A stretch of 64,000 bases of DNA, from NCBI GenBank assembly GCA_948144175.1, contig CANXME010000532.1:3967001-4031000 (forward strand). The letters run 5' to 3'. The DNA comes from Closterium sp. NIES-65. Taxonomy: Eukaryota > Streptophyta > Zygnematophyceae > Desmidiales > Closteriaceae. Position numbers and translations under genes: made by a program. Below are positions 37,801 through 61,321 of this stretch, in pieces. The notes under the pieces were generated by a model, which saw only the letters and a list, made by a program, of their open reading frames with translations, searched no databases and was not told the DNA's origin. Every line of letters begins with the position of its first letter. Position 1 is the stretch's first letter.

Positions 37801-38239
37801 CTGTGGGAAAGGCAGCAAGGTCAGGGAACAAGTACGGCAGCATGAGGCGGCTAAGCGCAGCAGTGGCAGGGGAAGAGTAACGTGCAACTACAGCGTCGTA
37901 CAAGGTCTTAGCACTCTTATACTGGCTAAAGTGCGCACGCTCAGTGGTCAGTAAGTGGCGACGCACAGCAAGACGGACAGCAGCATCGCGTGTGGCCCAC
38001 TGTGAGCGAACAATGCTGTAAGCAGTAGCAGGCGGGGATGGAGAGGCACTTGAGGTGAGATCGAACAGGGAGAGTCCGTCTGCCCTATCGCACCGTAGGA
38101 ACAGCTGGAGGTCGTCGACCCAGACCTCAAAGTCAACAGCACGACCCTCAGCATCAAAGGTAAGGACAGTGGGGGTAGCCATGACTGCAGTGGCCTAGCA
38201 GGGAGTGATCTCACCAGTCCGAGTAAGTAGGGCCGGGGC

Positions 38240-41690: not shown

Positions 41691-44600
41691 AACCGCCCGT
41701 GCCACCCGCGTCACCCAAGCCACCCGAGCCGCCTGCGCCGCTGAGGAGCCGAGCCGCACGAGCCGCCTGTGCCGCTGAGTGCCCGAGCCGCCCGAGCCGC
41801 CCGAGCCGCCCGAGCCGCCCGACCTGCCCGACCCGCCCGAGCCGCCCGAGCCGCTTGCGCCGCCCGAGCCGCCCGAGTCACCTGAGGAGCCGAGTCGCTG
41901 GTCCCGCGGAGCTTCTGTTGCTGCTGGGCCGACCGAGCTGCTGTGTTGCCGTGTTGCTGTGCTACTGTGCTGCCCGACCCGTCCTGTCTGGTGAGACCGT
42001 CAACTGCTGTCATGGCTACCCCCAGTGTCCTTGCTTTTGACGCTGAGGGCCGCGCCATTGACTTTGAGGTCTGGGTCGACGACCTGCAGCTGTTCTTGCA
42101 GTGCGATAGGGTAGACGACCTTTCTCTCTTTGACCGTACATCTGGTGCCGTCCCTGCCCCTGCTGCTGATGCTGACCCCACTGTTCGCTCCAAGTGGGCC
42201 ACACGCGATGCTGCTGCACGTCTTGCTGTGCGTCGCCACCTGCCTACCGCTGAGCGTGCACACTTTAGTCAGTACAAGAGTGCCCAGACCTTGTACGACG
42301 CTGTAGTTGCGCGCTACTCCTCCCCTGCCACTGCTGCACTGAGCCGCCTCATGCTCCCCTTCCTCTTCCCTGACCTTGCCGCCTTTCCCACTGTCGCTGA
42401 TCTCATTACGCACCTCCGCACAAGTGACACCCGCTACCGCGCTGCGCTTCCTGCTGACTTCTGCGCCAAGAACCCTCCCCCCATGTACATCACTCTCTAC
42501 TTTCTAGTCACTCGTCTCCCTGACTCCCTTCGTGTAGTCCGGGACCACTTTCTCGCGGTCTGTCCCACCACTCTCACAGTCGACAGCCTCGAGAAGGCCC
42601 TCCTAGCGGCGGAGAAGAGCATCGTCGCTGTAGGAGCCTCTCGAGGTGACCCCCGCGCCCCCATTTTTTAGGGGTGTTTTCCTTCCCCTCTCTTGCCCTC
42701 TGTAGCCTGTGCCGCTGCGGCCGACCTCGTTGGTCTTGAGTCAGTCGGTGCGGCGTCTGCCCCTAGCGGGAGACGCTGCTCTAGCAAGGGCAAGGGGGGC
42801 AAGGGAGCGGGTGGGGCCAGCGGGGGCGGTGGAGGTGGAGGTGGAGGCGGCGGAGGGAGTGGGGGTGGCGGTGGAGGTGGTGGCGGGGGTGGGGGTGCTA
42901 GTGGCGGCAGTGGAGGCGGAGGTGGCGGAGGCGGTGGCGGTGGGAGCGGAGGTGGCAGAGGCGGTGGCGGTGGTGGAGGAGGCGGGGGCGGCGGTGGTGG
43001 TGGTCGGAGTGGCGCTTCGCAACGGAGCAGCACTGGAGGTGGTCAGCGCCGGCAGCAGCAGCAGCAGCAGCGTTCTCGCGACGTCCCCACCCCTCAGCAG
43101 CTCCGTGAGTGGTACACGCAGCGTCAGCGGGGTGGGAGTTTTGGTCCTTGCACCTACGTTCTTCGCACTAGCGACCGCGCCGTAGAGCAGTGTGGGGGTA
43201 CCCACTCCGCCCAGCGCTGCTTTGGCCGCCTGACGGACGCTTGGCGCCAGCAGTTCCCGGAGGCCGCGGAGATCCCCCGCTGGGGAGAGCTGTCTAGGGC
43301 TGGTGTAGCTATTTTTGATCTTGACTTTGATGCTATCCTTGCTGCTATGTATGCTGTGACCATTAGTGATGAGGGTGACTGTTACCGGTGTTTCCCGCCC
43401 GACCCGGGCATTGAGGCTGCTGCTCTAGGTGCGAGTGCGTCTGTGCTCTCATGTACTGGTGAGGCTGCTCTCTCAGGTACTAGTGAGTCCGCGCTCTCAG
43501 GTACTGCGTCGGCCTCTGCCTCCCACACCTTCACCCTTCACTCTGGGGCGTCTTGCTCCTTCTTTCGGGACCGCACCACACTCACGCCACTAAGTCGGCC
43601 GGTTGCGGTGTCCTTGGCTGACCCCTCTGGGGGTCCTGTCCTGTCTCGCTTCTCCACAGTCCTTCCGTGTCCGGCGGCTCCCTCTGGCACCCTGTCTGGT
43701 CTCTACCTCCCCTCGTTCTCTACAAACTTGGTGAGTGGTGCTGACCTACAGGATGCGGGAGTCCACCAGTTCACCCCTGCTCGTCAGCGAGTGACGCACT
43801 GCACAGAGGCTAGCACAGGTCGTCACCTGGCTACGTTTACACGTCAGCCAGGGTCGAGCCTTTACACACCGACCACTCCTTCTCCTCCAGTTCCTGAGTC
43901 TGGTAGGGTCCCTTCGTCCGGTCAGGTGTTTGCTGCAGCGTCCAGGTCTGGTCCTGAGTCCGCCCCCTGTTCGTGTCGTCGCCTGTCTCACGAGACTCTC
44001 CTCTGGCACCACCGCCTGGGTCACCCCTCTCTGCTTCGGCTCAGAGGCATGGCCTCCCGTCTCCTTGTCTCTGGTCTCCCCAGGTCCCTCCCTCCCCTTC
44101 CTCAGGGCCCTGGCCCTGCGTGTGTCCCCTGTGTCGAGGGACGCCAGCGTGCTGCCCCTCACTCCTCCCAGTTTCCTCCGACAGAGGCTCCGTTGCAGAC
44201 GCTTCACATGGACGTGTGGGGCCCTGCCCGAGTCCGTGGACTGGGTCACGAGCGCTACTTCCTGTTGGTGGTTGACGACTACTCGCGTTACACCGCAGTC
44301 TTCCCCTTGCGCACCAAGGGTGATGTCACTGAGGTGCTGATCGAGTGGATCCGCGCAGTTCGTCTCCAGCTCAGGCAGAGCTTTGGCTCGGACTTTCCTG
44401 TGTTGCGTCTGCACTCGGACAGAGGCGGAGAGTTCTCCTCCGGCCTTCTGCGTGCCTACTGTCGTGCGCGAGGCATCCGTCAGACCTTCACGCTTCCGGA
44501 CTCACCGCAGCAAAATGGGATTGCAGAGCGCCGCATTGGCATGGTCATGGACGTCGCTCGTACGTCTATGATGCATGCGGCTGCCCCCCATTTTCTGTGG

Positions 44601-45005
44601 CCGTTTGCGGTCAGGTACGCAGCGCATCAGATCAACCTCCACCCCAGGGTCTCCCGGCCGGAGACCTCCCCAGCCCTGCTGTGGACGGGGAAGGTTGGCG
44701 ATGCGTCGACGTTCCGGGTCTGGGGATCTCGGGCGTTTGTCCGCGACTTGTCTGCGGACAAGCTGTCCCCTCGCGCTGCTCCCTGCGTCTTCCTGGGGTT
44801 CCCCCCTGACGCCCCTGGGTGGCAGTTCTACCACCCCACCTCTCGCCGTGTTTTGTCCTCCCAGGACGTCACGTTCGACGAGTCCGTCCCCTTCTACCGC
44901 CTCTTCCCCTACCGCACTCCTTCCCTCCCGCCGCCACCGCACTTGAGCTGGTATGAAAACTGCGCCGGAGTTGCTGACAAGGAGCACGTTGGCTTGCGGG
45001 CAGCC

Positions 45006-45275
45006 CTAACGGTCGGTCATCATGTCCGACAACACGGTGACCCAATCCCGCTTCCAGCTCCCGACAATGGGGGCGAGCGTGACCTCCATTTTGTGCCGCA
45101 CTTTCTTCAAGCCCGCCCCTCCAATGAAGCGCCTCTTGGGGGGAACATACCCTTGTTCAGCGCACGCAATGCACTGGACCGCGTAGCGGAAGACCAGGTC
45201 ATCCGCGATGCGCTGCGGAAGTTTCAGCGTCACGAACATAAGGCTGCGGGTGTATCCGCGTCCTTCTTGGCGCAC
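45006..45275 (-). pseudogene. hAT transposase, N-proximal fragment
   Basis: On the minus strand the region reads FVTLKLPQRIADDLVFRYAV, then GYVPPKRRFIGGAGLKKVRHKM and DWVTVLSDMMTDRRARQ. This matches the DUF659 part of hAT transposases (K..P.R.FIGG.GL...., followed by the ..V..SDGWTD block, here SDMMTD). The frame is open across this piece but leads only into the remaining copia sequence at 44945, so the catalytic middle is missing. A BED zinc finger expected upstream is not clear to me. Confidence 0.75.
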
Positions 45276-46055
45276 GTCGCCTCATCACTGAAGAAGTCTG
45301 TTATCTTCCCCTTCTTTTCCAAAGAACCAGTGAGCGTGCCCAGCGCAGAGTCAAGTACTGCAGTGGCCCTCGTTTAGAGCCTTTTTTTCCCCCCTTCTCC
45401 ACCTACATGGCGCGCACTTTTTCACTGACTATGGGGACACCTTCTTGCAAAGCCTGACAACGCGTTTCTCCTACCCTTTCCATTTGGGGAGGTGAACTGC
45501 GCAGCGAATGGTCTTGCCCTCAAACTAGAAGTCACAAAACTTACACATCATGGGAGTGCCTTTGGCGTGTTACGGAATAAGAAAATGTTTCAAAGTGGGG
45601 TTCGAAAGGCCAGCCTCAACAGGCTCCTTGTTGATTTTACGACTAGACGTGTGAACAGAGGCTACATTGCTCATCGCAGTAGGAAGGGTGGAGTTTGACG
45701 CCATGGCGTGCGACTAGTGAACGGTAGACTACCTGAGGAAAAATGGGAGAAGAGAGCTGCGGGAATGAAATTGAGAAGGAGAATCGACTGAAACATAGGA
45801 ACTCGTCAACCATGACATGTTCAGACGATATGTGGTGAACATTTGAGAGGGTGGTTGGATACGAGAGGTTTGGTCGGGTGGTGTTTGGTTGGGGTGGTTG
45901 GAGGTTTGGATTCTGAAATTTGAATTTCATAAGTCGGTTGGCGATGATCGCGATCACGATAACAATTTGCGAGGTCGCAAAACCGTTGCAAGTCGGTTTT
46001 GATTAAAAAAAAAAAGGGCTGTCCGGGAGTAATTTCACGATTCCCGAGCGTATTA
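45276..46055 (-). other. Upstream part of the hAT element
   Basis: Sequence between the transposase fragment and the right inverted repeat. It probably held the transposase promoter and N-terminus. The AT-rich stretch 45830-46010 shows no gene. Confidence 0.45.
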
Positions 46056-46095
46056 GCGTACCATGCACATACGCAAGCATATGTACATGGTACGC
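46056..46095. repeat. Hairpin at the inner edge of the hAT right end
   Basis: Arms of 16 bp (gcgtaccatgcacata and tatgtacatggtacgc) pair at 15 of 16 positions around an 8-base loop. Confidence 0.85.
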
Positions 46096-46099
46096 TGTT

Positions 46100-46636: not shown

Positions 46637-46962
46637 CATACGCCACCCTGCCCAAGGTGTATCTGCCAATGTAGAGGCAGACCACGTGCCTCATGATATT
46701 TGCACACATTTTGCAAAAACATTTGTAACGTCGCTATAATTTTCCTGTATAGTTCCATAAGCACAAGGTACAGCGACTGGACTGCCCCATCCTATTTGAA
46801 CATTGCCACCATTTTCTTTACCGGATGGTCCATATACCTGTTTGAAGAGTCCTCACCTCATGACTGGGGTTTTCCACTTTCATTCTCACCCTTGACTACC
46901 TTCCGTGAGTTCAGGCGTAATTAGCAGCTATTTAATCATCCAGCCAATCATCCCACCCACAA
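46637..46962. other. Intergenic flank upstream of the lectin-like exon
   Basis: Short sequence between the hAT element and the first recognisable host exon. A signal-peptide exon for the lectin-like gene could lie here, but I cannot identify one. Confidence 0.4.
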
Positions 46963-47548
46963 CTATGCTCACCAAGGGGACACTGAAGGAGATGGGAGGG
47001 AAGTTCACCACAACTCCGGTGACACAGTTTGTGTACGAGGCAGGGCAGACAGCGTCGGGGCATGGAGTGCAACTGGCCTTCCAGGTCAACTTCACCTTCA
47101 CGCTCTCGCCCCGGTCGGGCCGCACGTGTGGCGGAGGATTTGCCTTTGTCATCTCGGCAACGGATAAGCTGGGGAGTGGATCCAGTGTGGGGTATAGTGG
47201 AATGGACAGCCAGAGCATAGCAGTTGAATTCGACACTCTGCGGGACAAGCAGCGTTGAACATTCAAGGCCAGGCTAGGTCGGTAGCTGCTGTGAAGGCAC
47301 CATTTTCTTTGAACAACAAGAAGCCGTACACGGCAGGGGTGGACTACGATCCTAGGGATCCCGGCACCATCCATGTGTTCCTGGCTGCTACGGAGGTGAA
47401 GCCAGAGCTGCCGCTGCTGGAGAGGAGGCTGGCTCTGTGTGAGGTGCTGCAGGCTCGAGCGGAGTAGCAGAAATTCTTCTTTGGTTTGTGGTAGCCACTG
47501 TGAAGCCGTTCCAGATGCATGTCATCCTCACGTCGGCAGTGCACACAG
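46963..47548 (+). pseudogene. Legume-lectin-like domain, decayed
   Basis: This reads as most of a legume-lectin beta-sandwich. The blocks are LAFQVNFTFTLSPRSG, GGGFAFVISATDKLG, then GYSGMDSQSIAVEFDTL (family pattern GL...AVEFDT). After a frame change at about 47255 it continues as NIQGQARSVAAV, VDYDPRDPGTIHVFLA and LLERRLALCEVLQ. A stop codon near 47465 and another frame change near 47492 precede VKPFQMHVILTSAVHT, which ends at a GT splice donor at 47549. The residues expected between EFDT and NIQG, which in legume lectins carry the metal- and sugar-binding Asn/Asp, appear deleted. I see no signal peptide. This is a host gene piece, either the N-terminal part of the peptidase-LysM gene to its right or a separate lectin gene. 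Confidence 0.72.
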
Positions 47549-49297
47549 GTAATGACAGCCCTGTGGTGGTCCAATGATGGTAGTTATGATGGTGCTGGTG
47601 CTGGTGCAGCTGGCGGCGGCGGCGACCGCGGTGGCGGTGGCGGTCGTGATAGGCTGATGCTGATTGAGATTATCACATGCATTGGTGCTATCATCCCAGT
47701 AGCTTAAACCTGTTCATTCAGCTGCCTCAAGGATAGTTCATGGTGTCTAATATACAGTGCCACAATTGAAACTATATGAAATTGTTCAGCCCATTGAATG
47801 CTTGTTATCTCGCTATGCTCTCGACCATTTCCCATAACTTTATGGTGCTGCTCATGTGTGCCAATTTTTCAGGTCTTCCTGCTATACACAATCCAGTGGG
47901 TATCATTCCAGGTGAGCAGCCTACTTTTCTATTGCATCAACGACAAACAAACTACTCGTTGTCCATTAATCTCTCCCTCCGTGTTCCTCTTCTAAGAACC
48001 CTGGTGTCTGTATGTTACACAGAATTCATGCACTCTGTTCCCCAATCTTTCTCTCCAATGTACTGATTTGATTGAGCACGTGTATGTACTGTTAGTCTTA
48101 AAACGTACTAAGCTAGCTACTAACAAGCTTTAGGTGGCACTAGAACTCTCTCCTCGGGGTCACCTCCGAGGGTCCTTGGGTGCCTGACCAAGGTCAGCCC
48201 CTATCCAAGGGTCCGAGTGTGTAGAGAGAGAGTCGTAGCAACAGCTAAAGTGTAGTAGCAATCGTCGATTCCTTGGCGTTGTCAAGAGAATTAACTATAG
48301 CAGCTTACTTGCAGCAGGCACAGAAGAAATCCTTCACTAAAGTTATATTTTGGAACAACAAGAACAACTAGTTTTATACTAAGCTAAATCATTCTACTCC
48401 TACCTTGATCTAGGTGTTCCAAATTCACACCTCGTAGCGCGAGCAGATTTTCACGTTCCCTCCCATTCTCTTCGTGACCTGGTGCGCACTCGATGCGATA
48501 CCGAAATATTTCGTCTTTCGCGCGCGAACATTGTTGACGGTGCCGATCTGATAAGTTCACTTCGCGCCAATCTCGAACGGTTGCAATGAAGTCCGTTTAA
48601 AACCTGAACGAGTCGACATGTCGGTGGCGATCAGCATTGCGTTCGATCGCTCAACTGCTGCTCGCCACGTGCCCTCGCTCCAAACTTTCTTTTGATCTGA
48701 ACTGTCAGTTCTGCTAATAAACGTGAGCAACCGAACTTACTCGAGATCTCGATGATCTACCCTCCTGCGCTAAAGAACGATTCGCGAGCATATAGCGCTC
48801 GCGCTACCGAGCACGCTAATTAACACGCTAATGAACATGCTAATTAACACGCTAATGAACACACTCACGAACACGCTAACGAACACACTAATAACACGCT
48901 CACAAACACGCTAACGAATACGTCGCACTAGCAAGGACCAATCTCGCTCCTCGAACAGTGGCAACGCGAGCAGCTTCTCGCTCGAACTCATGAGCAACTG
49001 CCATTTCAAACGACAGCCCTTCAGAACCTCCAAGACAGCTCACTCAAAAACAAAAAAACGTCGGACTCGCTCCTTGAACACCACCAGCCGCTCCCATTGG
49101 TCAAGACCAGCCTATACTTCACCTTGGTTGTACTAGACTCGCCGCTCCATTCAGGTGCAGTTACAATACCTGAATCATAACCTTGAATTGGCAGATTGAA
49201 TTAGAGAAAAGGTATTTCTGTAAGCAACATGTACAACCCATCCCTTCCCATTTCAACAACTCCTTCCTCTGCCCTGAACCCACCTTGCCAATCTCAG
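47549..49297. other. Intron or spacer between lectin-like and peptidase exons
   Basis: No clear exon. A Gly-rich reading frame follows the lectin donor (about 47580-47660). A possible 42-bp mini-exon at 47873-47914 is flanked by AG and GT but cannot be tied to a domain. From about 48060 to 49150 the DNA is AT-richer and unlike either side, which suggests an old insertion of unknown type. Confidence 0.4.
48811..48922. repeat. 12-bp tandem repeat
   Basis: About nine imperfect copies of aacacgctaatg and variants (aacacgctaacg, aacatgctaatt) in the spacer of the lectin-peptidase locus. Confidence 0.8.
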
Positions 49298-49480
49298 CCT
49301 TAGGCCTGCGCATCTTTGTGGCGTCATATGCGCCAATAGGGGCCAACCCCTTCATGCACTACATGAGTGCGGACTACCAAGTGTCGTCCAACGAGCCCAA
49401 TAAATGGCACATCAGTAGCTCCCACTCCTGGGACACCATGTCCTTCCTTGGCTGGCCTGTGAAGAACCAGAAGAGCTGCA
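49298..49480 (+). pseudogene. Papain-like (C1A) peptidase, exon with the oxyanion Gln
   Basis: This exon follows a pyrimidine-rich AG acceptor and ends at the donor gtgagt (49481). It encodes GLRIFVASYAPIGANPFMHY, then HISSSHSWDTMSFLGWPVKNQKSC. The end matches the start of mature C1A peptidases (W...G.VTPVKNQG.C), where the Gln forms the oxyanion hole. The catalytic Cys lies just past this exon. The stretch before the peptidase core would be the propeptide or a linker and resembles nothing I know. The strand and order fit one gene with the EGF and LysM exons downstream. Confidence 0.72.
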
Positions 49481-49629
49481 GTGAGTGGGCATGGTTAGAA
49501 TGAATAGCGGGTACAAGGGAAGTTAGACTTTTCCACCCACAGAGGCTATGGTGTGTTGTGATTTTGAAGTACTATTAGTAGTTTTTTTTTTTCCCTATCT
49601 TCATCCTTCAAAACACTACCTTTTTCCAA

Positions 49630-49808
49630 ATGCGAGTTGGGCATATGCAATGGTGGCAAGTTTGGAGGCGGCATATGGCATTGGGCTGAACCACGGCTGT
49701 CATTGGACTCGCTCTTTGCAGCCATGGGGCTCACCTCCCCTGCTGCCAAGTGCACCAGAGGGAACTCCCTTGCTGCGGCCTTTGAAAAGCTCCTCACTCT
49801 ACCACGTG
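49630..49808 (+). pseudogene. Papain-like (C1A) peptidase, active-site helix exon
   Basis: This reads NASWAYAMVASLEAAYGI, aligning with GSCWAFAAVAA.E of papain-like enzymes, then after a one-base frame change LSLDSLFAAMGLTSPAAKC and AAFEKLLTLP. Two oddities stand out. The residue in the catalytic Cys position is Ser. The base pair before the exon is aa rather than the ag needed for splicing if the join keeps the C-x-x-C/S-W spacing. Both fit decay, though a Ser-for-Cys swap also occurs in natural relatives such as silicateins. The exon ends at a GT donor at 49809. The His and Asn active-site exons were not found. Confidence 0.65.
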
Positions 49809-50040
49809 GTCAGGTTCGGAAGCCATATTGTATCACTTCATTTTTTTCGATCCTTCTGGTCTCTTTTCTTCCATATCGTCTTGTCTGTAATATAAACCTA
49901 ATCCAAGTTCTTATTAATGGTTTGCCTGCATCTATTATCAAGCAAGGATGCATAATTGTGCTAGGTAACAAAGTTAGAGGCACGTTCACACTTCTCAGAG
50001 AAATCCACATCTGCCATTCTAATGATCTTTGTGGCCAAAG

Positions 50041-50213
50041 GAGCTACAAGGGCGTCGGGGACCTGCAGCCAAGCATGAACCCGTGCGGTCACTTAAGATG
50101 TAAGCCAAACACAAAGACCAAGAGAAACACCTGCAACTGCACCATACCTAACCAGGCCATAGAGCCCTTTGTTGCGGTGGCAAACGGATTGGGCACCCAC
50201 ACGTGCACATATG
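50041..50213 (+). pseudogene. EGF-like module 1 exon
   Basis: Encodes GDLQPSMNPCGHLRCKPN, NTCNCTIPNQAIEPFVAVAN and GTHTCTY and ends at the donor gtgagt (50214). The NPCG....C...C.C pattern is EGF-like and resembles the next module. The left boundary is uncertain. Confidence 0.6.
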
Positions 50214-50391
50214 GTGAGTCATATTTATGACCAAACAATTCCACTGAAAGCAACCATTTGGAGGTTTTCGTAGATGCAGATGCACCCATGGCATGTTTCT
50301 GCAAGTCCACCTTTTTTGTCAGCATCTCTTACATCGCATCTTTCACCACCCATGTTCACCCCCTATCATCAACTAAACACTTGACGTGTGC

Positions 50392-50580
50392 AGTTCTTAC
50401 GCTATGAACCCCTGCGGTGTGGGCAGGTGCGTGAATGATGGCAAGGGCGCCTACTCCTGCATCTGCCCTCCCAACTACATTAAGAGCACGACAGTTGACA
50501 ACTCCTCCACCTGTGATCCTTGTACCGCCAATCTAGCCTCACTCACTCATATGGCCCTCTTGACTGATCAGTACATTTGA
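50392..50580 (+). pseudogene. EGF-like module 2 exon
   Basis: This reads DVCSSYAMNPCGVGRCVNDG, then YSCICPPNY and TVDNSSTCDP. The six-Cys spacing and the Y.C.CPP core are typical of extracellular EGF-like domains. The split codon left by the preceding exon would join as Asp here, but no AG acceptor stands directly before it. The frame runs on to a stop at 50578 where an intron is expected. Confidence 0.65.
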
Positions 50581-51555
50581 TAGAGTATTATAGGTTGGTT
50601 GCTATCCCAGCAAGATGGACAATTTAGAGGGATTGTGCATATCAACAATCGTTCAGTATAGCATCACCAAGCTTCAGATAAGCTCATGTGCACCTTCTTG
50701 GCACCATCTAATTCGTGTGTGTCTCCTTTTCTCACTCCAACCAACACCACGGCAACTACTTTGACGGTCACTGGTGCTAACTGGTGGTGCTCTGGCGTCC
50801 TTGCTACGACCGGCCTTTCCTTCGCTAACCTCCCAAAGCTAACTGTGATGAGAAATAGCTGACCATTTCACCGTAGTATATGGATTTGCCTTTGTTGGAA
50901 AAATTATCCAGCGCTCTAGGGAACAGTCGATACATAGGTACCATCCTCTATATGTAAAGTAGATTTTCAAAAACATACATCTTCTTGCATGGGCATGCCA
51001 TAAAAACAAAAAACCCATTTTGCCCTGCAGGGAAATGGATATGGTAATAGGAGGTTGAATATGGAGACGTAGAAGGTAGACGTAAACGTGAGCCAGGCCA
51101 GGATCCGGCCTAGCTAAAGCTAGCCCTGGTTCCTAATGGGCTTGGCCAACTTTACTGACTGTTTGGACCATGGTGGGCCAGCCCCAGGCCAAGATCTGTG
51201 GTCCTGGGGTGTCCCTCTCCTTCATGAAATTTGATGTTTTCGCTCTACTTCCTGCTCTAGCAACCCATTCTTTAGGTCTCTCCACCTGCCTACTATCCTA
51301 GCCATCCAATTGGATGTCAGCTGTCCCTCAGTTGTCCTCAGGCCTTGTCAAAGTCACGAATAGGGTGGCCACAAGTGGCCTTTCCTCATTGGTCGGGCCA
51401 CAAGTAGTATATCCTTATTTCTCACGCCGTGGCCCAACTTTCTCACATTCTACGGACAACCCCAGCCAGTTCCAGCATATGCTCATTCATAGGATGCACG
51501 GATGGATAGTAGCATACATTTGCATAGAACAAGGAACCCCTCCTATGTATTGCAG
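50581..51555. other. Intron-like sequence before the LysM exons
   Basis: No recognisable exon. AT-rich sequence with short palindromes near 51099-51123. The right end supplies the tgcag acceptor of the LysM exon. Confidence 0.4.
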
Positions 51556-51651
51556 GCCGTTGATTGCAGCCAACCATTGCCTAAAGGCAAGGTGATTCAG
51601 TTGGGCAGCACTACCACAACTCCCTGCACTGCCTTCTTCTATACAATCAAT
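51556..51651 (+). pseudogene. LysM lead-in exon
   Basis: A clean exon between tgcag and gtgagt, 32 codons in phase: AVDCSQPLPKGKVIQLGSTT, then TPCTAFFYTIN. It joins in frame to GDSCSSI of the next exon, giving the Cys-x5-YTIN-GDSC pattern that starts plant LysM domains. The DCS..LPKGKVI part looks like the end of an earlier LysM repeat. Confidence 0.75.
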
Positions 51652-51918
51652 GTGAGTCGTCATTTGTAAACAGAGATTCAGTGAGTTAAAGCTGTGTTGT
51701 TGTTGTGTTTCCCCCCCCCCCCCCCCCCCCTCAAAGAACACGTATCCGTCCAAAACTATGCAAGAAAGGCCACCCTTCTACCACCCATCTCTGACCAACA
51801 CCACAGAACCCACCTGCAATGAATATCGTCAATTGTTTTCCTAGAAAATCCTGTCTCGGTGCACCGTTTCCCTTCAACAAGCACTCCTTTGCTCTCTCTC
51901 GCCCTCTCTCTCCTCCAG

Positions 51919-52238
51919 GGTGACAGCTGCTCGTCTATCAGCACCCAGCTTGGAATCTCATCGACTGATCTTATCTCTCTCAATCCCCTGCCTCGATTGT
52001 TCCGTGGCCATCAAGGTAAGCCACTCTCTGTGCCTCGAGCGCAACGCCACTTTTGCGTTCACCACCCCTAAGTGCTTGCAGTACGGCATGCTGACAGCAC
52101 AGGACACATGCGAGGGCCTTCTGCAGCAGGCCTTGGAGTCTAGTGAGGAGAAACGTGATGGGCTGGTAGTGGTGACTGCAGCTAGCTGGGTTGAGCTCTA
52201 CCGCAACAATCCTGGCCTCATCTGTCCTCGCACAGTTC
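51919..52238 (+). pseudogene. LysM domain exon, cut by a copia insertion
   Basis: Follows a strong pyrimidine tract and AG. It reads GDSCSSISTQLGISSTDLIS-LNP, then after a one-base frame change near 51995 CLDCSVAIKVSHSLCLERNA. A second LysM-like unit follows, CLQYGMLTAQDTCEGLLQQA up to WVELYRNNPGLICPRT. LysM modules bind N-acetylglucosamine polymers (chitin, peptidoglycan), usually outside the cell. The coding frame meets the copia LTR at 52239 inside this exon and would resume at 59782 (VPPSSATVASGNSVQ, donor at 59828). Apart from the single frame change and the insertion it is well preserved. Confidence 0.75.
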
Positions 52239-52372
52239 TGTGAAGAAGTGAACGAGAGAATGGGAATGACTATGAACGAAGTGAGTACAAATAGGAAACC
52301 CTAATTGGGTTGTACCCCCTATGGGATACCCCACTATAGCCTACAGAAACAAGAAAGCTATATGTTCTGACA
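52239..52372 (-). repeat. 3' LTR of the young copia element
   Basis: 134 bp with TG...CA ends, one difference from 59648-59781. Confidence 0.95.
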
Positions 52373-52584
52373 CACCCCCATAGGCAAAGTGGGGGAGAAC
52401 AAGGGGTCACAAGTCCAGTCAAGCAAAGCAAAGCAAAGCTCAGGGTGGATCACAAAGTCACCACGCATTCCGAGCACAAGTTCAGAGGCCACACGGCCAA
52501 TTCACATGCAAGATCATATATAGAGGTATACAAGAGTCAAGCAAGCAAGAGCAAGAGTATATATATGCGAAGGTACAAGCAAGG

Positions 52585-55500
52585 TCAAGAGGAGAGCAAG
52601 TGAGGCAAGACAGACACAAGACCCAACTGCGTGCAGCAACGCTGATGATCACAAGGTGCAAGTGCCTTGGTGAAGACATCAGCAGTGTTGGCCTCAGAGG
52701 CCACGTACGCAAGTCGCAGCTGTCCACGCTGCTGTAGCTCACGAGCAAGAAAGTAGCGGAGAGCAATGTGCTTCGTTCTATGCTCCACTCGCTGCTCTCG
52801 ACACAAGGCCAGCATGGCCTTGTTGTCTACGTACAGGACTGGAGGAGAACGAGGCTGCTCTCCAAGGTCGGTCAGCAGGTAGGTGAGCCAGCGCAACTCC
52901 TGTGCAGCCATAGCCCCAGCGTAGATCTCAGCCTCACAACTGGAGCCGAGAACAGAAGACGAGCGGGTAGCCCGCCACGAGACAGAGCCGGAACCAAGGC
53001 TGAAGGTGTAACCCTGTGACGACCGCTGCGTAGCCTGGTCGTCAGCCCAAGAAGCGTCTGCGTGCCCAGTGAGGACCACTGGACTGCGCCCTCCAAGCAC
53101 TAGCCCCATGCCCGACGTACTGCACAAGTAGCGCAACACCCTCTTCGCTGCAGCCATGTGCTCTGGTCGGTGTCTCCCAGGAGCAACAAAGCGTGCGAGA
53201 AGGCTAAGAGGGTATGCGAGGTCAGGTCGTGTGCAGGTCATCAGGTACATGAGGCAGCCAACAAGCTCTGCAAACGGGCCACTCGACTCTACGGACTCAT
53301 CCGAAGGCAGAGCTGAGAGCGAGTGGCGAGTAGGCAGAGGAGTGGCCTGAGGTGAGGAGTACGTGAAGCCGAAGCGCTGAAGGACCTGCTGCACCATGTG
53401 TGACTGAGTCAGGGTAATGGTGCGGCGTGCTCTGTCCCGGGTGATCTGCAAGCCAAGGTAGCTGCGCAGTTCACCCAGGTCAGTGCACGTGTGTCTCTTC
53501 TGCAGCTCGGACTTCACGTAGGCGAGTCCAGCAGTGTCAGCTGTGGCAAAGACCAAGTCGTCGACGTACACGAGGATGTAGAACGGCGGCAGAGAGGTGT
53601 CGGTGCGCAGAAACAGCGACGGGTCGGCAGTAGAAGGAGCAAACCCAAGTGCCGCGAGCGTAGTCCTCAGTGTGTCGTGCCACTCACGTGGCGCCTGGCA
53701 AAGACCGTAGACTGGACGCCGGAGACTCCACTGGGTACCAGGAGGGAAAGACCCAGTGAAGCCAGGTGGGCGACGCAGCCAGATCTCCTCGTGCAGGCTG
53801 CCCTGCAAGAAAGCTGTGCTGAAGTCGAGAGAGTGCAGCTCGTAGTCACGGTGAGCAGCAACGTGCAGCAGAACCCGAAGAGTGGTCATCTTCGGGATGG
53901 GGGAGAAGTTCTGAAAGTAGTCAACCCCCTGCCGCTGACTGAAGCCACGAGCCACATAACGCGCCTTGAAGACAGGAGGAGAACCCGGCGGCCGCTTCAC
54001 CCTGAAAATCCACATGCCACTGACGATGTTCGCCCAAGGAGGGGGAACAGCATCAACGTAGGTGCCTGTGGACTTCCAGGAAGCCATCTCTGCATCCATA
54101 GCTGCCTGCCACTGAGAGGAGTAGGGACCCTCTATCGCCTCCGCGTAAGAGCGCGGAGTCAGGATGTCTAGTGCATCCGGGTCTCCCTCAGGGGCTAGCA
54201 GTACAGACGCGAGACAAGGTGAAGCGGCGGCCAGACACTGGAACTCCTCCTGCCTGTCCTCAAGGACGTCCGTGCTAAGGGCACACTCACCCCCGACGGA
54301 CGGAGGGCAGGCGGACTCAGACTCAGTGACAAGACGAGCAGCGTAGTCTAGACGACAGCGCGCAGCAAAGTCGACAAGCTCAGTGACAAGGGCACACGCA
54401 GCAGACGACTCGAAGGAAGGGTCAGTGACAGCAGTAGCAAGGAGACGCGTGACAGTAGGACTGGCAGCACGAAGAGAGTCCGACTCCGGGTCGGCAAGAG
54501 TAGGAAGAGAGGAAGCAGGAGGAGAAGGCAAAGGGGCACGCAGAGGAGCAGTGGACGGACGCAGAGACATCCGGTGCGTGCCAGGGACAGGAGGAGGACG
54601 CTGACGCGACCCGCGACTACTAGCGCGCTCAGTACGAACAGGCGACACAGGACGAGACGCAGGCTCACGACGCTCAGTAAGACCTCCAGTCGGACCAGCG
54701 TAGGGAGAAGGAGCAGGCAAAGGGGAGGCAGGCTGTAGCTGTGGCTGCGACCGGACAGGCTGCGGACCCTCTAAGGGAGGAGGAGGAGGTGTAAGACCAA
54801 GAACCTGCTGAAGGAGCGGAACGAAGTACGGTCGGGGCCGCGCGGCGACGCTAGAAACAGCAGGAACAGCACCAGCAGCCCCGGCAGGAGCACCCACTCC
54901 AGCAGCACCTCCAGCAGCAACACCAGAAGCTCCAGAACCTCCAGCAGCAGCACTAGGAGCACTGTCAGTCGGACTGCCAACGGCAGGCTCAGCGCCAACA
55001 CCCTCAGCAGTACCATCTCTAGGAGAACTCTCAGACCCAGCAGCTCCAGCACCCACAGTACGAGCACCGGCGGGACGCGCGGCAGCAGTAACCTCTGCAG
55101 CCGAAGAACCACCAGCACCAGCAGCACGCCTCCAGCGCCTGGAAAACCACTCACGCAGCTCCTGTGGGGAGAGTGGCTCCCGGCGAGACGAAGCACCCCC
55201 AGGCACAGCACCTCCAGGCTCAGCACCCCCAGGCTCAGCACCCCTAGACACAGCACCCCCAGGCGCAGCACCTCCAGGCTCAGCACCCCCAGGCACAGCA
55301 CCCCCAGACTCGGCACCTCCAGGCTCAGCACCCCCAGGCACAGCACCTACAGGCTCAGCACCCCTAGGCACAGCACCCCCAGACTCGGCACCTCCAGGCT
55401 CAGCACCCTCAGGCACAGCACCCCCAGGCTCAGCACCCCCAGACTCCGCACCCCCAGGCTCAGCTCCCGCAGCAGCACCAGAGTCACCAGTGACCTCGAC

Positions 55501-58500
55501 AGGCTCGACCGCGTCTACCTGGGACACACCTGAAGGGGCAGGACCCTGAGGGGGGAGGCGGACTACCGGGGGGGGACCTGGTACCAAGAAGAGCGGGGGT
55601 GGGGGGAGGGACGGAGTGCGGTAGGGGAAGAGGCGGTAGTAGGGTACCGACTCGTCGAACGTGACGTCCTGGGAGGACAGAACACGTCGAGAGGTGGGGT
55701 GGTAAAACTGCCACCCAGGAGCGTCGGGGGGGAACCCCAGGAAGACGCAGGGAGAAGCACGAGGGGACAGCTTGTCCGCAGACAGGTCGCGAACAAACGC
55801 CCGAGATCCCCAGACCCGGAACGCCGACGCATCGCCAACCTTCCCGGTCCACAGCAGGGCTGGGGAGGTCTCCGGTCGAGAGACCCTGGGGTGGAGGTTG
55901 ATCTGGTGCGCAGCGTACCTGACCGCAAACGGCCACAGAAAATGGGGAGCAGCCGCATGCATCATGGACGTACGAGCGACGTCCATGACCATGCCAATGC
56001 GGCGCTCAGCAATCCCATTCTGCTGTGGTGAGTCCGGAAGCGTGAAGGTCTGACGGATGCCTCGCGCACTACAGTAGGCACTCAGGAGGCCAGAGGAGAA
56101 CTCTCCACCTCTGTCCGAGTGCAGACGCAAAACAGGGAAGTCAGAGCCAAAGCTCCTCCGAAGCTGAAGACGAGCTGCGCGGATCCAGTCGATCAACACC
56201 TCAGTGACCTCACCCTTGCTGCGCAAGGGGAAGACTGTGGTGTAACGCGAGTAGTCGTCAACCACCAGCAGGAAGTAGCGCTCCTGACCCTGTCCACGGA
56301 CGCGGGCTGGGCCCCACACGTCCATGTGAAGCGTCTGCAACGGGGCCTCTGTCGGAGGAAACTGGGAGGAGTGAGAGGCAGCACGCTGGCGCCCCTCGAC
56401 ACAGGGGACACAGGTAGGGCCAGGGCCCGGAGGAAGGGGAGGGAGAGACCGGGGAAGACCAGACACAAGGACTCGAGAGGCCATGCCTCTGAGCCGAAGC
56501 AGAGAGGGGTGGCCAAGTCGGTGGTGCCAGAGGAGGGTCTCGTGAGACAGACGACGACACGAGCAGGGGGCAGACTCAGGACCAGACCTGGACGCTGCAG
56601 TGAACACCTGACCAGACGAAAGGACCCTACCAGACTCAGCACCTGGAGGAGAAGCAGTGGTCAGTGTGTAGAGGCTCGACCCTGGCCGACGTGTAAACGT
56701 AGCCAGGTGGCGACCTGTATCCGCCTCCGTGCAGTGGGTCACCCGCTGACAAGCAGGGGTGAACTGGTGAACACCCGCATCCTGGAGGTCAGCACCACTC
56801 ACCAAGTTCGTCGAGAACGAGGGGAGGTAGAGACCAGTCAGGGTGCCAGAGGGGGCCGCCGGACACGGGAGAACAGTGGAGAAGCGAGACAGGACAGGCC
56901 CCCCAGAGGGGTCAGCCAGGGACACCGCAACCGGCCGACTCAGCGGCGTGAGAGTGGTGCGGTCCCTAAAGAAGGAGCGAGACGCTCCAGAGTCAAGGGT
57001 GAAGGTGTGAGAGGCCGAAGCCGACACAGTACCTGAGAGGGCAGACTCACCAGCACCTGAGAGCACAGACGCACTGGCACCTAGAGCAGCAGCCTCACCA
57101 GTACCTGACGCGGCAGTACCAATGCCCGGGTCGGGCGGGAAACACCGGTAACAGTCATCCTCATCACTACCAGTCACAGCATACATAGCAGAGAGAATAG
57201 CATCAAAATCAAGATCATAAATAGCTACACCAGCCCTAGACAGCTCTCCCCAGCGGGGGATCTCAGCGGCCTCCGCAAACTGCAGACGCCAGGCGTCGGT
57301 CAGGCGGCCAAAGCAGCGGCGGGGTGTGTGGGCGCCTCCACACCTCTCCCCTGCACGGTCACCGGTGCGAAGAACGTAGGGGCAGGGACCAAGCGCACCA
57401 CCAAGCAGACGCTGCAAGTACCACTCACGGAGCTGCTGAGGGCCGGGGACGGTGCGAGAGCGCTGCTGCTGCTGTGGCTGCTGCTGCGGCTGCTGCTGCT
57501 GCTGCTGCTGGCGCTGACCACCCCCAGAGCTGCTCCGCTGGGACGAGCCACTCCGACCCCCGCCTCCACCGCCACCCCCGTCTCCACTGCCACCTCCCCC
57601 ACCAGGACCGTCGCTCCCACCGCTCCCACCGCCTCCTCCGCTACCACCTCCGCCGCCACCTCCGCCTCCACCGCCACCACCAGTACCTCCACTCCCGCCA
57701 CCACTCCCACCGCCACCCCCACTCCCTCCGCCACCCCCACCGCCTCCTCCACCGCCCCCTCTAGCTCCACCCGCTCCCTTGCCCCCTTTGCCCTTGCCAG
57801 AGCGGCGTCTGCCGCTGGGGGCAGACGCCGCGCCGACCGACTCAAAACCAGTGAGGTCGGCCGCAGCGGCAGAGGCGACAGAGGGCAGCAGGGGGGAAGG
57901 ACCACACCCCTCAAAGATGGGGGTGCAAGGGTCACCTCGAGAGGCCCCTACAGCGACAATACTCTTCTCAGCCGCTAGCAGGGACTCCTCAAGGAGGTCG
58001 ATAGTGAGAGTGGTGGGACAGACAGAGAGAAACTGGTCCCTAACGACACGGAGGGACTCAGGGAGACGGGTGACGAGAAAGTAGAGAGTGATGTACATGG
58101 GAGGAGGGTTGGCGGCGCGGAACTCAGCAGGAAGGGCAGCGCGGTAGCGAGCGTCACTAGCGCGGTGGTGGGTAATGAGGTCAGCGACAGTGGGAAAGGC
58201 AGCGAGGTCAGGGAAGAGAAAAGGGAGCATGAGGCGGCTCAGCGTAGCGGAGGAAGGGGAGGAGTAGCGTGCAACTACAGCGTCGTACAAGGCCTGAGCG
58301 GTCTTGCACTGACTAAAGTGGGCACGCTCGGAGGAAGGGAGGTGGCGACGCACAGCAAGACGTGCAGCAGCATCGCGGGTCGCCCACTTGGAGCGAACGG
58401 CGGAATCAGCATCAGGAGGAGGGGCACGGACAGCGCCAGAGACAAAGTCAAAGAGAGAGACCTCATCGACCGCATCACACAGTAAGTACAGCTGCAGGTC

Positions 58501-58569
58501 CTCAATCCATACTGCAATGTCAATGGCTCTACCCTCAGCATCAAAAGCTAGGACATTGGGGGTGGCCAT
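52585..58569 (-). CDS. Copia Gag-Pol polyprotein of the young element
   Basis: One open frame of 1994 residues from the ATG at 58567-58569. Parts by residue: gag about 1-260; Gly-rich tract about 265-345; variant zinc finger C-x13-C-x3-H-x4-C at about 395-420; aspartic protease LDSGAS at about 525; integrase HHCC region from about 680; integrase core with SDRGGEFSS at about 816 and NGIAERR at about 860; a spacer of six-residue repeats (GAEPGG, GAESGG, GAVPGG) at about 1035-1135; reverse transcriptase with YVDDLVF at about 1667; RNase H with DNKAMLAL at about 1914. This is the usual Ty1/copia order (integrase before reverse transcriptase). Gag and Pol share one frame, so gag excess would have to come from splicing or processing. 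Confidence 0.93.
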   Translation of the reverse strand: MATPNVLAFDAEGRAIDIAVWIEDLQLYLLCDAVDEVSLFDFVSGAVRAPPPDADSAVRSKWATRDAAARLAVRRHLPSSERAHFSQCKTAQALYDAVVARYSSPSSATLSRLMLPFLFPDLAAFPTVADLITHHRASDARYRAALPAEFRAANPPPMYITLYFLVTRLPESLRVVRDQFLSVCPTTLTIDLLEESLLAAEKSIVAVGASRGDPCTPIFEGCGPSPLLPSVASAAAADLTGFESVGAASAPSGRRRSGKGKGGKGAGGARGGGGGGGGGGGGSGGGGGSGGGSGGTGGGGGGGGGGGGGSGGGGGSGGSDGPGGGGGSGDGGGGGGGGRSGSSQRSSSGGGQRQQQQQQQPQQQPQQQQRSRTVPGPQQLREWYLQRLLGGALGPCPYVLRTGDRAGERCGGAHTPRRCFGRLTDAWRLQFAEAAEIPRWGELSRAGVAIYDLDFDAILSAMYAVTGSDEDDCYRCFPPDPGIGTAASGTGEAAALGASASVLSGAGESALSGTVSASASHTFTLDSGASRSFFRDRTTLTPLSRPVAVSLADPSGGPVLSRFSTVLPCPAAPSGTLTGLYLPSFSTNLVSGADLQDAGVHQFTPACQRVTHCTEADTGRHLATFTRRPGSSLYTLTTASPPGAESGRVLSSGQVFTAASRSGPESAPCSCRRLSHETLLWHHRLGHPSLLRLRGMASRVLVSGLPRSLPPLPPGPGPTCVPCVEGRQRAASHSSQFPPTEAPLQTLHMDVWGPARVRGQGQERYFLLVVDDYSRYTTVFPLRSKGEVTEVLIDWIRAARLQLRRSFGSDFPVLRLHSDRGGEFSSGLLSAYCSARGIRQTFTLPDSPQQNGIAERRIGMVMDVARTSMMHAAAPHFLWPFAVRYAAHQINLHPRVSRPETSPALLWTGKVGDASAFRVWGSRAFVRDLSADKLSPRASPCVFLGFPPDAPGWQFYHPTSRRVLSSQDVTFDESVPYYRLFPYRTPSLPPPPLFLVPGPPPVVRLPPQGPAPSGVSQVDAVEPVEVTGDSGAAAGAEPGGAESGGAEPGGAVPEGAEPGGAESGGAVPRGAEPVGAVPGGAEPGGAESGGAVPGGAEPGGAAPGGAVSRGAEPGGAEPGGAVPGGASSRREPLSPQELREWFSRRWRRAAGAGGSSAAEVTAAARPAGARTVGAGAAGSESSPRDGTAEGVGAEPAVGSPTDSAPSAAAGGSGASGVAAGGAAGVGAPAGAAGAVPAVSSVAARPRPYFVPLLQQVLGLTPPPPPLEGPQPVRSQPQLQPASPLPAPSPYAGPTGGLTERREPASRPVSPVRTERASSRGSRQRPPPVPGTHRMSLRPSTAPLRAPLPSPPASSLPTLADPESDSLRAASPTVTRLLATAVTDPSFESSAACALVTELVDFAARCRLDYAARLVTESESACPPSVGGECALSTDVLEDRQEEFQCLAAASPCLASVLLAPEGDPDALDILTPRSYAEAIEGPYSSQWQAAMDAEMASWKSTGTYVDAVPPPWANIVSGMWIFRVKRPPGSPPVFKARYVARGFSQRQGVDYFQNFSPIPKMTTLRVLLHVAAHRDYELHSLDFSTAFLQGSLHEEIWLRRPPGFTGSFPPGTQWSLRRPVYGLCQAPREWHDTLRTTLAALGFAPSTADPSLFLRTDTSLPPFYILVYVDDLVFATADTAGLAYVKSELQKRHTCTDLGELRSYLGLQITRDRARRTITLTQSHMVQQVLQRFGFTYSSPQATPLPTRHSLSALPSDESVESSGPFAELVGCLMYLMTCTRPDLAYPLSLLARFVAPGRHRPEHMAAAKRVLRYLCSTSGMGLVLGGRSPVVLTGHADASWADDQATQRSSQGYTFSLGSGSVSWRATRSSSVLGSSCEAEIYAGAMAAQELRWLTYLLTDLGEQPRSPPVLYVDNKAMLALCREQRVEHRTKHIALRYFLARELQQRGQLRLAYVASEANTADVFTKALAPCDHQRCCTQLGLVSVLPHLLSS

Positions 58570-58659
58570 GACAGCAGCTGACAGTCTCACCGGGCAGGAA
58601 GAGTCGGGTAGGTCAGCGGCGCAGGTACACAGCCCAGGAGCAGCAGCAGTCCGACAGGA

Positions 58660-59580
58660 GCAGGAGAGCAGCTCCTCTGGCGGCTCGGGCAGCTCGGGCG
58701 GCTCGGGCGGCTCGGGCGGCTCGGGCGGCTAGGGCGGCTCGGGCGGCTCGGGTGGCTAGGGCGGAGCGGGCGGCTCAGGCGGCTCGGGCGGCGGCACGGG
58801 CGGCTGGGGCAGCTCGGTGGCGGCTCACGGGCGGCTGGGACGGCGCGCGGGGAGCTCACGGGCGGCTGGGCGGGCGGCCAGGGCGGCTCACGGGCGGCGG
58901 CGGCGGCGTCAGCGGCTCACGGGCGGCGTCGGCGGCTCACGGGCGACGGCGGCTCACGGGCGGCGGCGGCGGCGTCGGCGGCTCACGGGCGGCGGCGGCG
59001 GCGTCGGCGGCTCACTGGCGACGGCAGCGGCAGCGGCGTCGACGGCTCACGGGCGGCGTCGGCGGCGTCGGCGGCTCACGCGTGGCGGCGGCGGCGTGGG
59101 CTGCTCACGGGCGGCGTCGGCAGCTCACGGGCCGGCTGAAGGCCCACGGGTGGGCGGTGCGTGGGGAGCGCCGGCTCACGGGCGGGCGGCGTGACGGGCG
59201 GGCGGCGGGACGGGCGGCGGCGTCACGGGGGGGGGTGACGGGACGGGCGGCGGCGTCACGGGCGGCGGCGTCACGGGCGGCGGTTCACGGGCGGCTGCGT
59301 CACGGGCGGCGCTCACGGGCGGCGCTAAAGGGTGGCGACGGGCGGCGGCTCACGGGCGGCGCTACGGGCGGCGGCTCACGGGGGGCGCTACGGGCGGCCG
59401 CACGGGCGGCGCTAACGGGCGGCCGCACGGGCGGCGCTACGAGCTGCGCAAAAGGCGGCGCGAACGAGCAGCCGCACCGGCGGCGCTAACGGGCGGCGCT
59501 AACGGGCGGCGCGAACGGGCGGCTCGAAAGGGCGGGCGCTAGGGCGGGCGCTAGGGCGGGCACTAGGGCGGGCGCCAGGG
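58660..59580 (-). repeat. GC-rich leader repeats of the young copia element
   Basis: Dense short repeats (gctcgggcgg, then gcggctcacgggcggc types) fill the leader between primer-binding site and gag. The arrangement matches sister copies but the unit differs. Confidence 0.85.
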
Positions 59581-59647
59581 CAGAAAAAAAAATTCTAGGT
59601 GGTGGGCCCGAAGCACAGTTCCCACAGGGGAACCTGCTCTGATTCCA

Positions 59648-59781
59648 TGTGAAGAAGTGAACGAGAGAATGGGAATGACTATGAACGAAGTGAGTACAAA
59701 TAGGAAACCCTAATTGGGTTGTACCCCCTATGGGATACCCCACTATAGCCTACAGAAACAAGTAAGCTATATGTTCTGACA
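59648..59781 (-). repeat. 5' LTR of the young copia element
   Basis: 134 bp. The primer-binding site lies immediately to its left. The target duplication agttc follows at 59782. Confidence 0.95.
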
Positions 59782-59827
59782 AGTTCCTCCATCCAGCGCC
59801 ACTGTTGCGAGTGGTAATAGCGTGCAA
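59782..59827 (+). pseudogene. Remainder of the interrupted LysM exon
   Basis: Continues the frame that was cut at 52238 (VPPSSATVASGNSVQ) and ends at a GT donor at 59828. The 5 bases agttc at its start are the target duplication. Confidence 0.6.
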
Positions 59828-59951
59828 GTGAGGTTTGGAGAACAAGGGCATTTGGGTTATAGCAATGCAATGAGTATTTGCATGCCACTTCTTTTCTTGC
59901 TTTTCAACTTTTGTTCTTTTGTCCACACTGTGCATGCAACTTCTATCCCAC

Positions 59952-60155
59952 GTGTGCCTCATGGCAGACTACGGGTCCCTGAATGCTCACAGCTGCAAGA
60001 AACGTAGGGTCAAGCCTGTGTCACCATCTCTGACATGTGGGGGAGCTTTCAACTTCAATGGTGGAGCTAAGACAGGACCGGCCAGAAATTTCAATGAATA
60101 CAATGGAAAGAAATGCTCGGGAACTGTAGGTCTGGAGTTTCTTTGTGTTCCCTAG
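59952..60155 (+). pseudogene. C-terminal exon of the LysM gene
   Basis: An open 67-codon exon ending in TAG: VCLMADYGSLNAHSCKKRRV, then SPSLTCGGAFNFN and YNGKKCSGTVGLEFLCVP. The evenly spaced Cys residues and the final GLEFLCVP suit a secreted extracellular tail. The base before the exon makes ac rather than ag at the expected acceptor. No membrane segment or kinase follows, so the product would have been secreted rather than receptor-like. Confidence 0.6.
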
Positions 60156-61321
60156 TCAGGTAGTTTGTGTTTCAATGGGGGTTAGATATTTAGTTGTTTT
60201 TGTTGACATGCATTAAGGGTACTTTTGTAGGAAAATGGGCCATAGTTTGATGATCCTACATTGTAACCACCCTAGTATAGAACACCCACGGTATTGCGTT
60301 CCGTCTAAGCAAGGAGATACAGTATGCTTATGAGTAAGTTTCTATGGCCCCTGACAAGATCAACCTAATAGGTATTAGACTTCCAAAAATCATCTAAATT
60401 CAGGCTTAAGCGGACTTCTATTTTCACAATTTTGGTGACTCGCGAAGTGCAAGTTAAATCACATGGGTGATGTGGCCCGCGGCAAAGCTAGCATTGCAAC
60501 CCTGCTGCCCTAAAACACTTCCACTTGATGTGGGTCTGAAATGAAACTTGTGAACAATGTTCAATCGAGTCAGTTATCATTTTGCCATACGTTTTTGGCG
60601 CGCTAGAGAAATGCTCAACAAAGTAGAGATTTCGTGAATTTTCGGTGTGACGTGGCTTGATGTTGTGCCACGTCGGAAGCAAATTCATGTCACGCAAGGC
60701 TGGTTCTTCAATATTGGAAATTGGTGAAGAGGGAGCAATCCTTCATTGATTTGGAAGAACCAAATGAAGAATGAGCTACAGGAGAGGCCAGGAGGCCATT
60801 TTATAGTTGTGGAAGAGCGGGAAGAGGCTAGGCGGGAAGAGGCTAGGCAGGAAGAGGCTAAGTCCCCTTTCGCTCTTGCTCTCTTGGCAGAACCAACGAA
60901 AAGTGACTTGCCATTTCCAGCTCAGGCTCGATACATTCCCTCCACATGATGAGGTCCCACCGACCTTGCAACGGCAGAGGCACGACGATCTTGTCCGGTG
61001 TGAATTCAAAGTAGCCATGCTGGAGCGACCCGGACCACCATCACATGCGTTGTCGACATGGGCCTCCCACTGCTTCACTGAGGAGAGCGGTGTCGCTCGT
61101 CAACGTTGACACATAAGCTGCCTATGGCCGCCGTCGACCGCTGCACTCGTGCCTGATTCCCGCTGACACCACCATGGACGGACTTGATCGCTCCAATCTT
61201 CCTCGTGCCCTCACTGCTGCTGACCTGATCACCGCCGTCGACATCACCTTCGCTTTGCACCGGCAAGGAGAAGCAGGGCGGGAAGGATGTTCCGCCACCC
61301 ACTGCGCGCGGACCCCAGGAG
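60156..61321. other. Intergenic DNA, no gene recognised
   Basis: Contains a short purine-rich tandem repeat (gaagaggctaggcgg type, three units at about 60829-60862). Several medium frames on both strands show no domain. Nothing here ties to the neighbouring elements. Confidence 0.45.

What the first reader, a model, noticed from the sequence alone, without database searches (positions are those of the whole stretch)
46963..60155. Host locus combining legume lectin-like, C1A peptidase, EGF-like and LysM modules
Same-strand exons run in the order lectin-like fold, papain-like peptidase, two EGF-like modules, two LysM-like units and a Cys-rich tail. If one gene, this would be a secreted glycan-binding protease with two kinds of sugar-binding module, an architecture I do not know as described. 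Exons from 49298 on share strand, spacing and compatible phases; inclusion of the lectin piece is inferred from position only.
Basis: partly seen in the sequence, partly recalled or inferred. Interest (0 to 1): 0.78.

Follow-up and report, generated by a model that had tools for sequence, protein, structure and literature searches.

The report
Broken lectin–peptidase-like–LysM gene

Summary
The modules are largely real; the 'secreted glycan-binding protease' is not supported. Legume lectin is solid (PF00139 E 1.9e-6 in one frame). One EGF-like domain (2.1e-5) and one LysM (1.8e-5 across a GT-AG intron) are solid. The papain-like part is weak (PF00112 E 0.12, below cut-off), though 20 of 20 PDB hits are papain-family; it spans 35-46 residues of the N-lobe, shows no well-placed catalytic Cys, and no His/Asn lobe was found. 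The other EGF-like and LysM-like units and the tail rest on spacing. Four frame breaks and one stop lie in about 1.8 kb of coding sequence, and a 7.5-kb Copia element (LTRs 133/134 identical, duplication AGTTC, open frame of 2047 codons) sits in the second LysM-like exon. Most likely a pseudogene. Lectin-to-peptidase linkage rests on strand, proximity and phase; the small connecting exon is not significant. C1A+LysM proteins outside vascular plants are published (passages); a legume lectin added would be a new variant, unproven. Five scans of viral and prokaryotic collections found no relative.

The parts
46965..47548 (+). Legume-lectin exon remnant with two frame breaks and one stop; donor GTAATG at 47549, 1 base left over
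   Evidence: PF00139; frames; splice. Profile positions 129-145 are unaligned at the first break, with only about 30 nt of DNA between the two aligned stretches
47873..47911 (+). Possible 39-nt linking exon, phase 1-1 (GLPAIHNPVGIIP)
   Evidence: weak: 115 of 500 dinucleotide shuffles of 47549-49297 hold at least one such exon
49298..49484 (+). Exon: linker plus start of papain-like N-lobe (GWPVKNQKSCS)
49637..49813 (+). Exon: rest of papain-like N-lobe, one frame break near 49686
49979..50213 (+). First EGF-like unit, by Cys spacing only
   Evidence: no EGF model hit; VWC2L_2nd E 0.03, below cut-off
50386..50550 (+). EGF-like domain (extent as submitted to the search; exon ends not settled)
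   Evidence: PF00008 E 2.1e-5, 3.3e-5
51556..51651 (+). LysM exon, first part (ends TPCTAFFYTIN, phase 0)
51919..52238 (+). LysM second part (GDSCSSISTQLGISSTDLISLNP), frame break near 51987, then second LysM-like unit up to the retrotransposon
   Evidence: second unit not recognised as LysM by Pfam; 57-aa single-sequence model pLDDT 58.6 with two helices
52239..59781 (-). Copia LTR retrotransposon: LTRs 52239-52372 and 59648-59781 (134 bp, 1 difference), primer-site-like TGGAATCAGAGC, target duplication AGTTC, stop-to-stop open frame 52588-58728
   Evidence: RVT_2 1.5e-47, SH3 2.1e-17, rve 1.2e-10, gag_pre-integrs 8.6e-9; Retrotran_gag_2 8.3e-4, below cut-off
59787..59827 (+). Continuation of the second LysM-like exon after the element (right-hand duplication copy is 59782-59786); frame continues across the empty site; end by eye
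59968..60155 (+). Candidate last exon, Cys-containing tail with stop
   Evidence: translation, start by eye; no Pfam or NCBIfam family for the tail

Best explanation
A decayed (pseudogene) copy of a eukaryotic, probably streptophyte-algal, gene that once encoded a modular glycan-binding protein. C1-like N-lobe, EGF-like and LysM exons belong to one gene, with the legume-lectin exon probably, not certainly, its N-terminal part. The locus lost its reading frame at several points, and a Copia retrotransposon inserted in the second LysM-like exon before, during or after that decay. In an intact relative I would expect an extracellular protein that binds wall or microbial glycans through lectin and LysM modules, with the papain half-domain acting as a non-catalytic scaffold. 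Shown: domains, frame breaks, insertion. Inferred: single gene, organism, extracellular location, non-catalytic role.
For: Domain hits. Papain-family PDB hits only, 20 of 20, against one shuffled control. Frames overlap or abut, leaving no room for an intron, near 47253, 49686 and 51987. Assembly error is unlikely as the cause: at the host lesion rate (4 frame breaks and 1 stop in 1763 model coding bases) the element's 6141-nt open frame should hold about 17 lesions and holds none, P about 3e-8. The empty-site reading frame is continuous. A six-frame papain motif scan over 49600-52238 and 59782-61000 gave 3 loose matches, none in a papain context by eye.
Against: No transcript, intact relative or parent genome was available, so 'one gene' and 'pseudogene' rest on one sequence. 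Repeats can be polished differently from single-copy DNA, so the lesion-rate comparison is not airtight. One route with a donor at 49494 puts Cys before the Trp, though with C-x4-C spacing. The donor with the GTGAGT sequence (49481) leads to Ser before the Trp by four routes. Four exon joins do not fit by hand, which could also mean missed exons.
Confidence: 0.68

Rival explanations
1. Two neighbouring loci: a broken legume-lectin gene or fragment, and a separate C1-like/EGF/LysM gene beginning at or before 49298. (Compatible with the pseudogene reading; rivals only the single-gene part.)
For: The 1.75 kb between them (47549-49297) is long beside the two short introns placed here (152 and 267 bp); phase agreement alone is a 1-in-3 event; the linking exon is not significant (115 of 500 shuffles). 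The passages on C1A+LysM proteins (PMC6362431) do not mention a legume lectin in them.
Against: No start codon context or signal peptide evident at 49298 (by eye); strand, order and phase fit one gene; the exon at 49298 seems to open in mid-protein.
Confidence: 0.35
2. A functional gene in the population; the frame breaks are sequencing errors and the Copia element is a recent insertion in this allele only.
For: LTRs differ at 1 of 134 sites and the element holds a 2047-codon open frame, so the insertion looks young; the second LysM-like exon reads on across the empty site.
Against: Four frame breaks and one stop spread over three modules, against 0 in the 6.1-kb open frame beside them; at the first lectin break 17 profile positions are unaligned over about 30 nt, more than a one-base error would give unless that loop is naturally short.
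Confidence: 0.15
3. The C1 match is chance or convergent, and the gene is lectin/EGF/LysM without any peptidase ancestry.
For: PF00112 E 0.12 is below the curated cut-off; only profile positions 15-53 align; no PDB hit has E below 0.023; NCBIfam gave no peptidase.
Against: 11 of 11 and 20 of 20 PDB hits are papain-family, against 2 unrelated hits for one shuffle; C1A+LysM is a published pairing.
Confidence: 0.1

Closest known systems
C1A peptidase + LysM proteins of Archaeplastida outside vascular plants (PMC6362431, passages; species not named in those passages)
   Same: C1A-type module and LysM in one protein
   Different: Here C1 is an N-lobe fragment without a well-placed catalytic Cys; EGF-like and possibly legume-lectin modules are added; the copy is broken
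EGF-like + lectin (GNA, ricin B) proteins of chlorophytes and/or bryophytes (same paper, passages)
   Same: EGF-like module beside a lectin module
   Different: Legume lectin and LysM instead of GNA or ricin B
Lectin_legB + kinase proteins of Zygnematophyceae and land plants (PMC9915684, passages)
   Same: Legume lectin recombined into a multi-domain protein
   Different: No kinase domain among the Pfam hits of this locus
Bacterial C1A with fused lectin domain (mentioned in PMC10380794, passages)
   Same: Papain-type peptidase joined to a lectin-like domain
   Different: A bacterial surface-layer-associated protein (reference title); a different lectin fold (recalled)

Membership tests
Peptidase family C1A (papain) | Catalytic Cys directly before Trp in Q..CxxCW (motif recalled; seen in falcipain alignment) | tested here: not met
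   Of 9 stop-free splice routes into the WAYA frame, the one closest to papain spacing gives Asp before Trp, 6 give Ser, 1 Ile and 1 Cys (donor 49494) with C-x4-C instead of C-x2-C spacing
Peptidase family C1A (papain) | C-terminal lobe with catalytic His and Asn | tested here: not met
   Six-frame motif scan of 49600-52238 and 59782-61000: 3 loose matches, none papain-like by eye; no C1 hit in the + strand ORFs submitted from there; ORFs under 45 aa and the - strand were not given to Pfam
Peptidase family C1A (papain) | Sequence similarity to the N-lobe | tested here: inconclusive
   PF00112 E 0.12, below cut-off; 20 of 20 PDB hits papain-family, best E 0.036; 11 of 11, best 0.023
Legume lectin | PF00139 domain | tested here: met
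   E 1.9e-6 in one frame, 28 bits over a cut-off of 26.3; 4.1e-12 joined. PDB phmmer of the joined reading: no hit at E 0.01
Legume lectin | Intact metal- and sugar-binding loop after VEFDT (residues recalled, not from a call) | tested here: inconclusive
   Profile positions 129-145 are unaligned at the frame break; the loop was not examined residue by residue
EGF-like | PF00008 match with six Cys | tested here: met
   50386-50550, E 2.1e-5; the unit at 49979-50213 has Cys spacing only
LysM | PF01476 match | tested here: met
   First unit E 1.8e-5 by splice alone; second unit no LysM match (DUF5441 E 0.21)
Secreted protein | Signal peptide | tested here: inconclusive
   None evident by eye at the first ATG (46965); no predictor was run and the true 5' end is unknown
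Copia LTR retrotransposon (insert) | LTRs, target duplication, primer site, integrase before reverse transcriptase | tested here: met

The most novel reading that the evidence does not exclude
Intact relatives exist in which a legume lectin, a catalytically dead papain half-domain, EGF-like modules and LysM modules form one secreted protein: a pseudo-protease glycan receptor or wall protein of streptophyte algae combining two kinds of sugar-binding module.
Probability: 0.3. Interest if true: 0.55.

Novelty: new variant of a known kind. Interest (0 to 1): 0.27.

Why it matters
If intact relatives keep lectin and LysM around a dead papain half-domain, they would be a new algal glycan-binding architecture, and if the organism is a streptophyte alga, one from near the origin of land plants, relevant to how such lineages sensed or remodelled walls and microbes. 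As it stands the locus is mainly an example of host-gene decay with a recent Copia insertion.

Tried and rejected
Tried and led nowhere: three viral-contig scans (9, 5 and 2 pattern matches, 0 confirmed) and two genome-contig scans (14 pattern matches each, 0 confirmed). These collections hold viral and prokaryotic contigs, not algal genomes, and the scans reach close relatives only, so this is weak evidence of absence. PDB search with the joined lectin gave no hit at E 0.01 although Pfam was positive. NCBIfam gave a monooxygenase model (E 0.15) for the C1 piece and murein transglycosylase D (E 0.11, over the first LysM) for the LysM piece, both far below cut-off. Pfam on 59874-60149 gave ZIP transporter E 0.028, below cut-off, not repeated with the tail alone. 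Single-sequence AlphaFold of the second LysM-like unit was poor (pLDDT 58.6), so no fold search was made. A linking exon at 47873-47911 looked persuasive, but 115 of 500 shuffles contain at least one. Papers whose passages gave nothing on this architecture: PMC10407611, PMC11289646, PMC7941945. Considered and rejected: active secreted protease; the 52.2-59.8 kb stretch as an ordinary intron. That the organism is a Closterium-like zygnematophyte is a recall-based guess (element density, GC, gene style), untested.

Full report
What was checked. The region 46.0-64.0 kb was read on the + strand and translated in the + frames (ORFs of 45 aa or more, chosen stretches); ORFs of 150 aa or more were listed on both strands of the whole window. 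One search found no tRNA. No parent genome is held for the window.

Domains. Pfam recognises a legume lectin in two overlapping frames: 46896-47252 (E 1.9e-6, profile 58-128) and 47228-47461 (E 0.003, profile 146-208, below cut-off); joined with X, E is 4.1e-12. EGF (PF00008) is found near 50.4 kb (E 3.3e-5, 2.1e-5). LysM (PF01476) appears when exons 51556-51651 and 51919 on are joined across a GT-AG intron of 267 bp, phase 0 (E 1.8e-5; intron). The first EGF-like unit, the second LysM-like unit and the tail matched no Pfam family above cut-off. NCBIfam, given the C1 piece, the LysM pieces and the tail, returned two sub-threshold models, one of them murein transglycosylase D over the first LysM.

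The papain-like module. The three single-frame pieces that cover it and the 122-aa splice gave no Pfam hit; a trimmed 81-aa query gave PF00112 as the only family at E up to 10, with E 0.12 and 12.9 bits (cut-off 20.7). In the PDB sequence search all 11 and all 20 hits at E up to 10 were papain-family chains (for the entries named only 'cysteine protease' the family is recalled), best E 0.023, while one shuffled query gave two unrelated hits. I accept papain ancestry, but only for the N-lobe stretch around GWPVKNQKSC...WAYAMVASLEAAYG. Of nine stop-free splice routes into that frame, the one closest to papain spacing (49485/49636) places Asp before the Trp, six place Ser, one Ile, and one (donor 49494) Cys but with two residues too many between the two Cys. 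No papain His/Asn lobe was found: a motif scan over 49600-52238 and 59782-61000 gave three loose matches, none in papain context by eye, and Pfam found no C1 in the + strand ORFs submitted from there. An active protease is therefore not supported.

Lesions. Frames change near 47253, between the stop at 47462-47464 and 47485, near 49686, and near 51987. At the first, lectin profile positions 129-145 are unaligned over about 30 nt. At three of the four the two frames overlap or abut, so an intron cannot explain them. Counting five lesions (four frame breaks, one stop) in 1763 model coding bases, the neighbouring 6141-nt open frame should carry about 17 if they were assembly errors, and carries none (P about 3e-8). 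The caveat is that repeats may be polished differently.

Insertion. 52239-59781 is a Copia element on the - strand: LTRs of 134 bp with one difference, target duplication AGTTC, primer-site-like TGGAATCAGAGC, and a stop-to-stop open frame of 2047 codons with GAG-pre-integrase, integrase and reverse transcriptase matches and a sub-threshold gag match. It interrupts the second LysM-like exon; across the empty site the frame runs on (CPRTV then PPSSATV). One LTR difference suggests that it is young. Whether the frame breaks came before or after it is unknown.

Linkage of the lectin. The lectin exon ends with one base over and the exon at 49298 starts in matching phase; a 39-nt phase-1 exon could lie between. 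A phase match is a 1-in-3 event and at least one comparable small exon occurs in 115 of 500 shuffles. I hold one gene to be more likely than two, but not shown. Four other joins (49813 to about 49980, 50213 to 50394, about 50516 to 51556, 59827 to 59968) gave no clean phase fit by hand reading, which fits decay or missed exons.

Relatives. Three viral-contig scans and two genome-contig scans confirmed none. No collection of algal genomes was available, so intact relatives could not be tested.

Literature. Passages of PMC6362431 report C1A peptidase associated with LysM in Archaeplastida, not retained in vascular plants, and EGF-like with GNA or ricin B lectins in chlorophytes and/or bryophytes. 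Passages of PMC9915684 report Lectin_legB with kinase in Zygnematophyceae and land plants. Passages of PMC10380794 mention a bacterial C1A with a lectin domain. In the listings of searches and the passages read I saw no report of legume lectin with C1A and LysM in one protein (for the three Pfam names, gave 0 papers). The library excludes most subscription journals, and supplements, where PMC6362431 lists its architectures, were not read.

Verdict. Real modules, probably one ancestral gene, now most likely a pseudogene with several frame breaks and a recent Copia insertion; the protease is at best a papain half-domain. Modest interest, hinging on intact relatives.

Noticed in passing
1736-3094 (-), 3755-6442 (-), 18194-18898 (+), 30683-32752 (+), 33002-34300 (+), 35714-38194 (-), 42672-45374 (+): Copia-type ORFs and fragments (RVT_2, rve, SH3, gag models): 7 of the 10 ORFs submitted there; the window is rich in retrotransposons.
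   Followed up: partly
13102-13617 (-): Start of a flavodoxin domain (Pfam E 8.1e-6), perhaps the first exon of a diflavin reductase gene.
   Followed up: no
40090-40671 (-): 194-aa open frame with protein-like sequence but no Pfam family at E 0.01.
   Followed up: no
46931-47521 (-): A 197-codon open frame antisense to the lectin exon; not searched.
   Followed up: no
48798-48921: 12-bp tandem repeat (AACACGCTAATG-like, about 8 units) inside the long putative intron between the lectin and C1-like exons.
   Followed up: no
58650-59590: Very GC-rich GGC and GGCTCACGGGC repeat tract inside the Copia element, next to its 5' LTR (read).
   Followed up: no
46055-46096: 20-bp inverted repeat, 90% complementary, with 2 nt between the arms, upstream of the lectin exon.
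   Followed up: no
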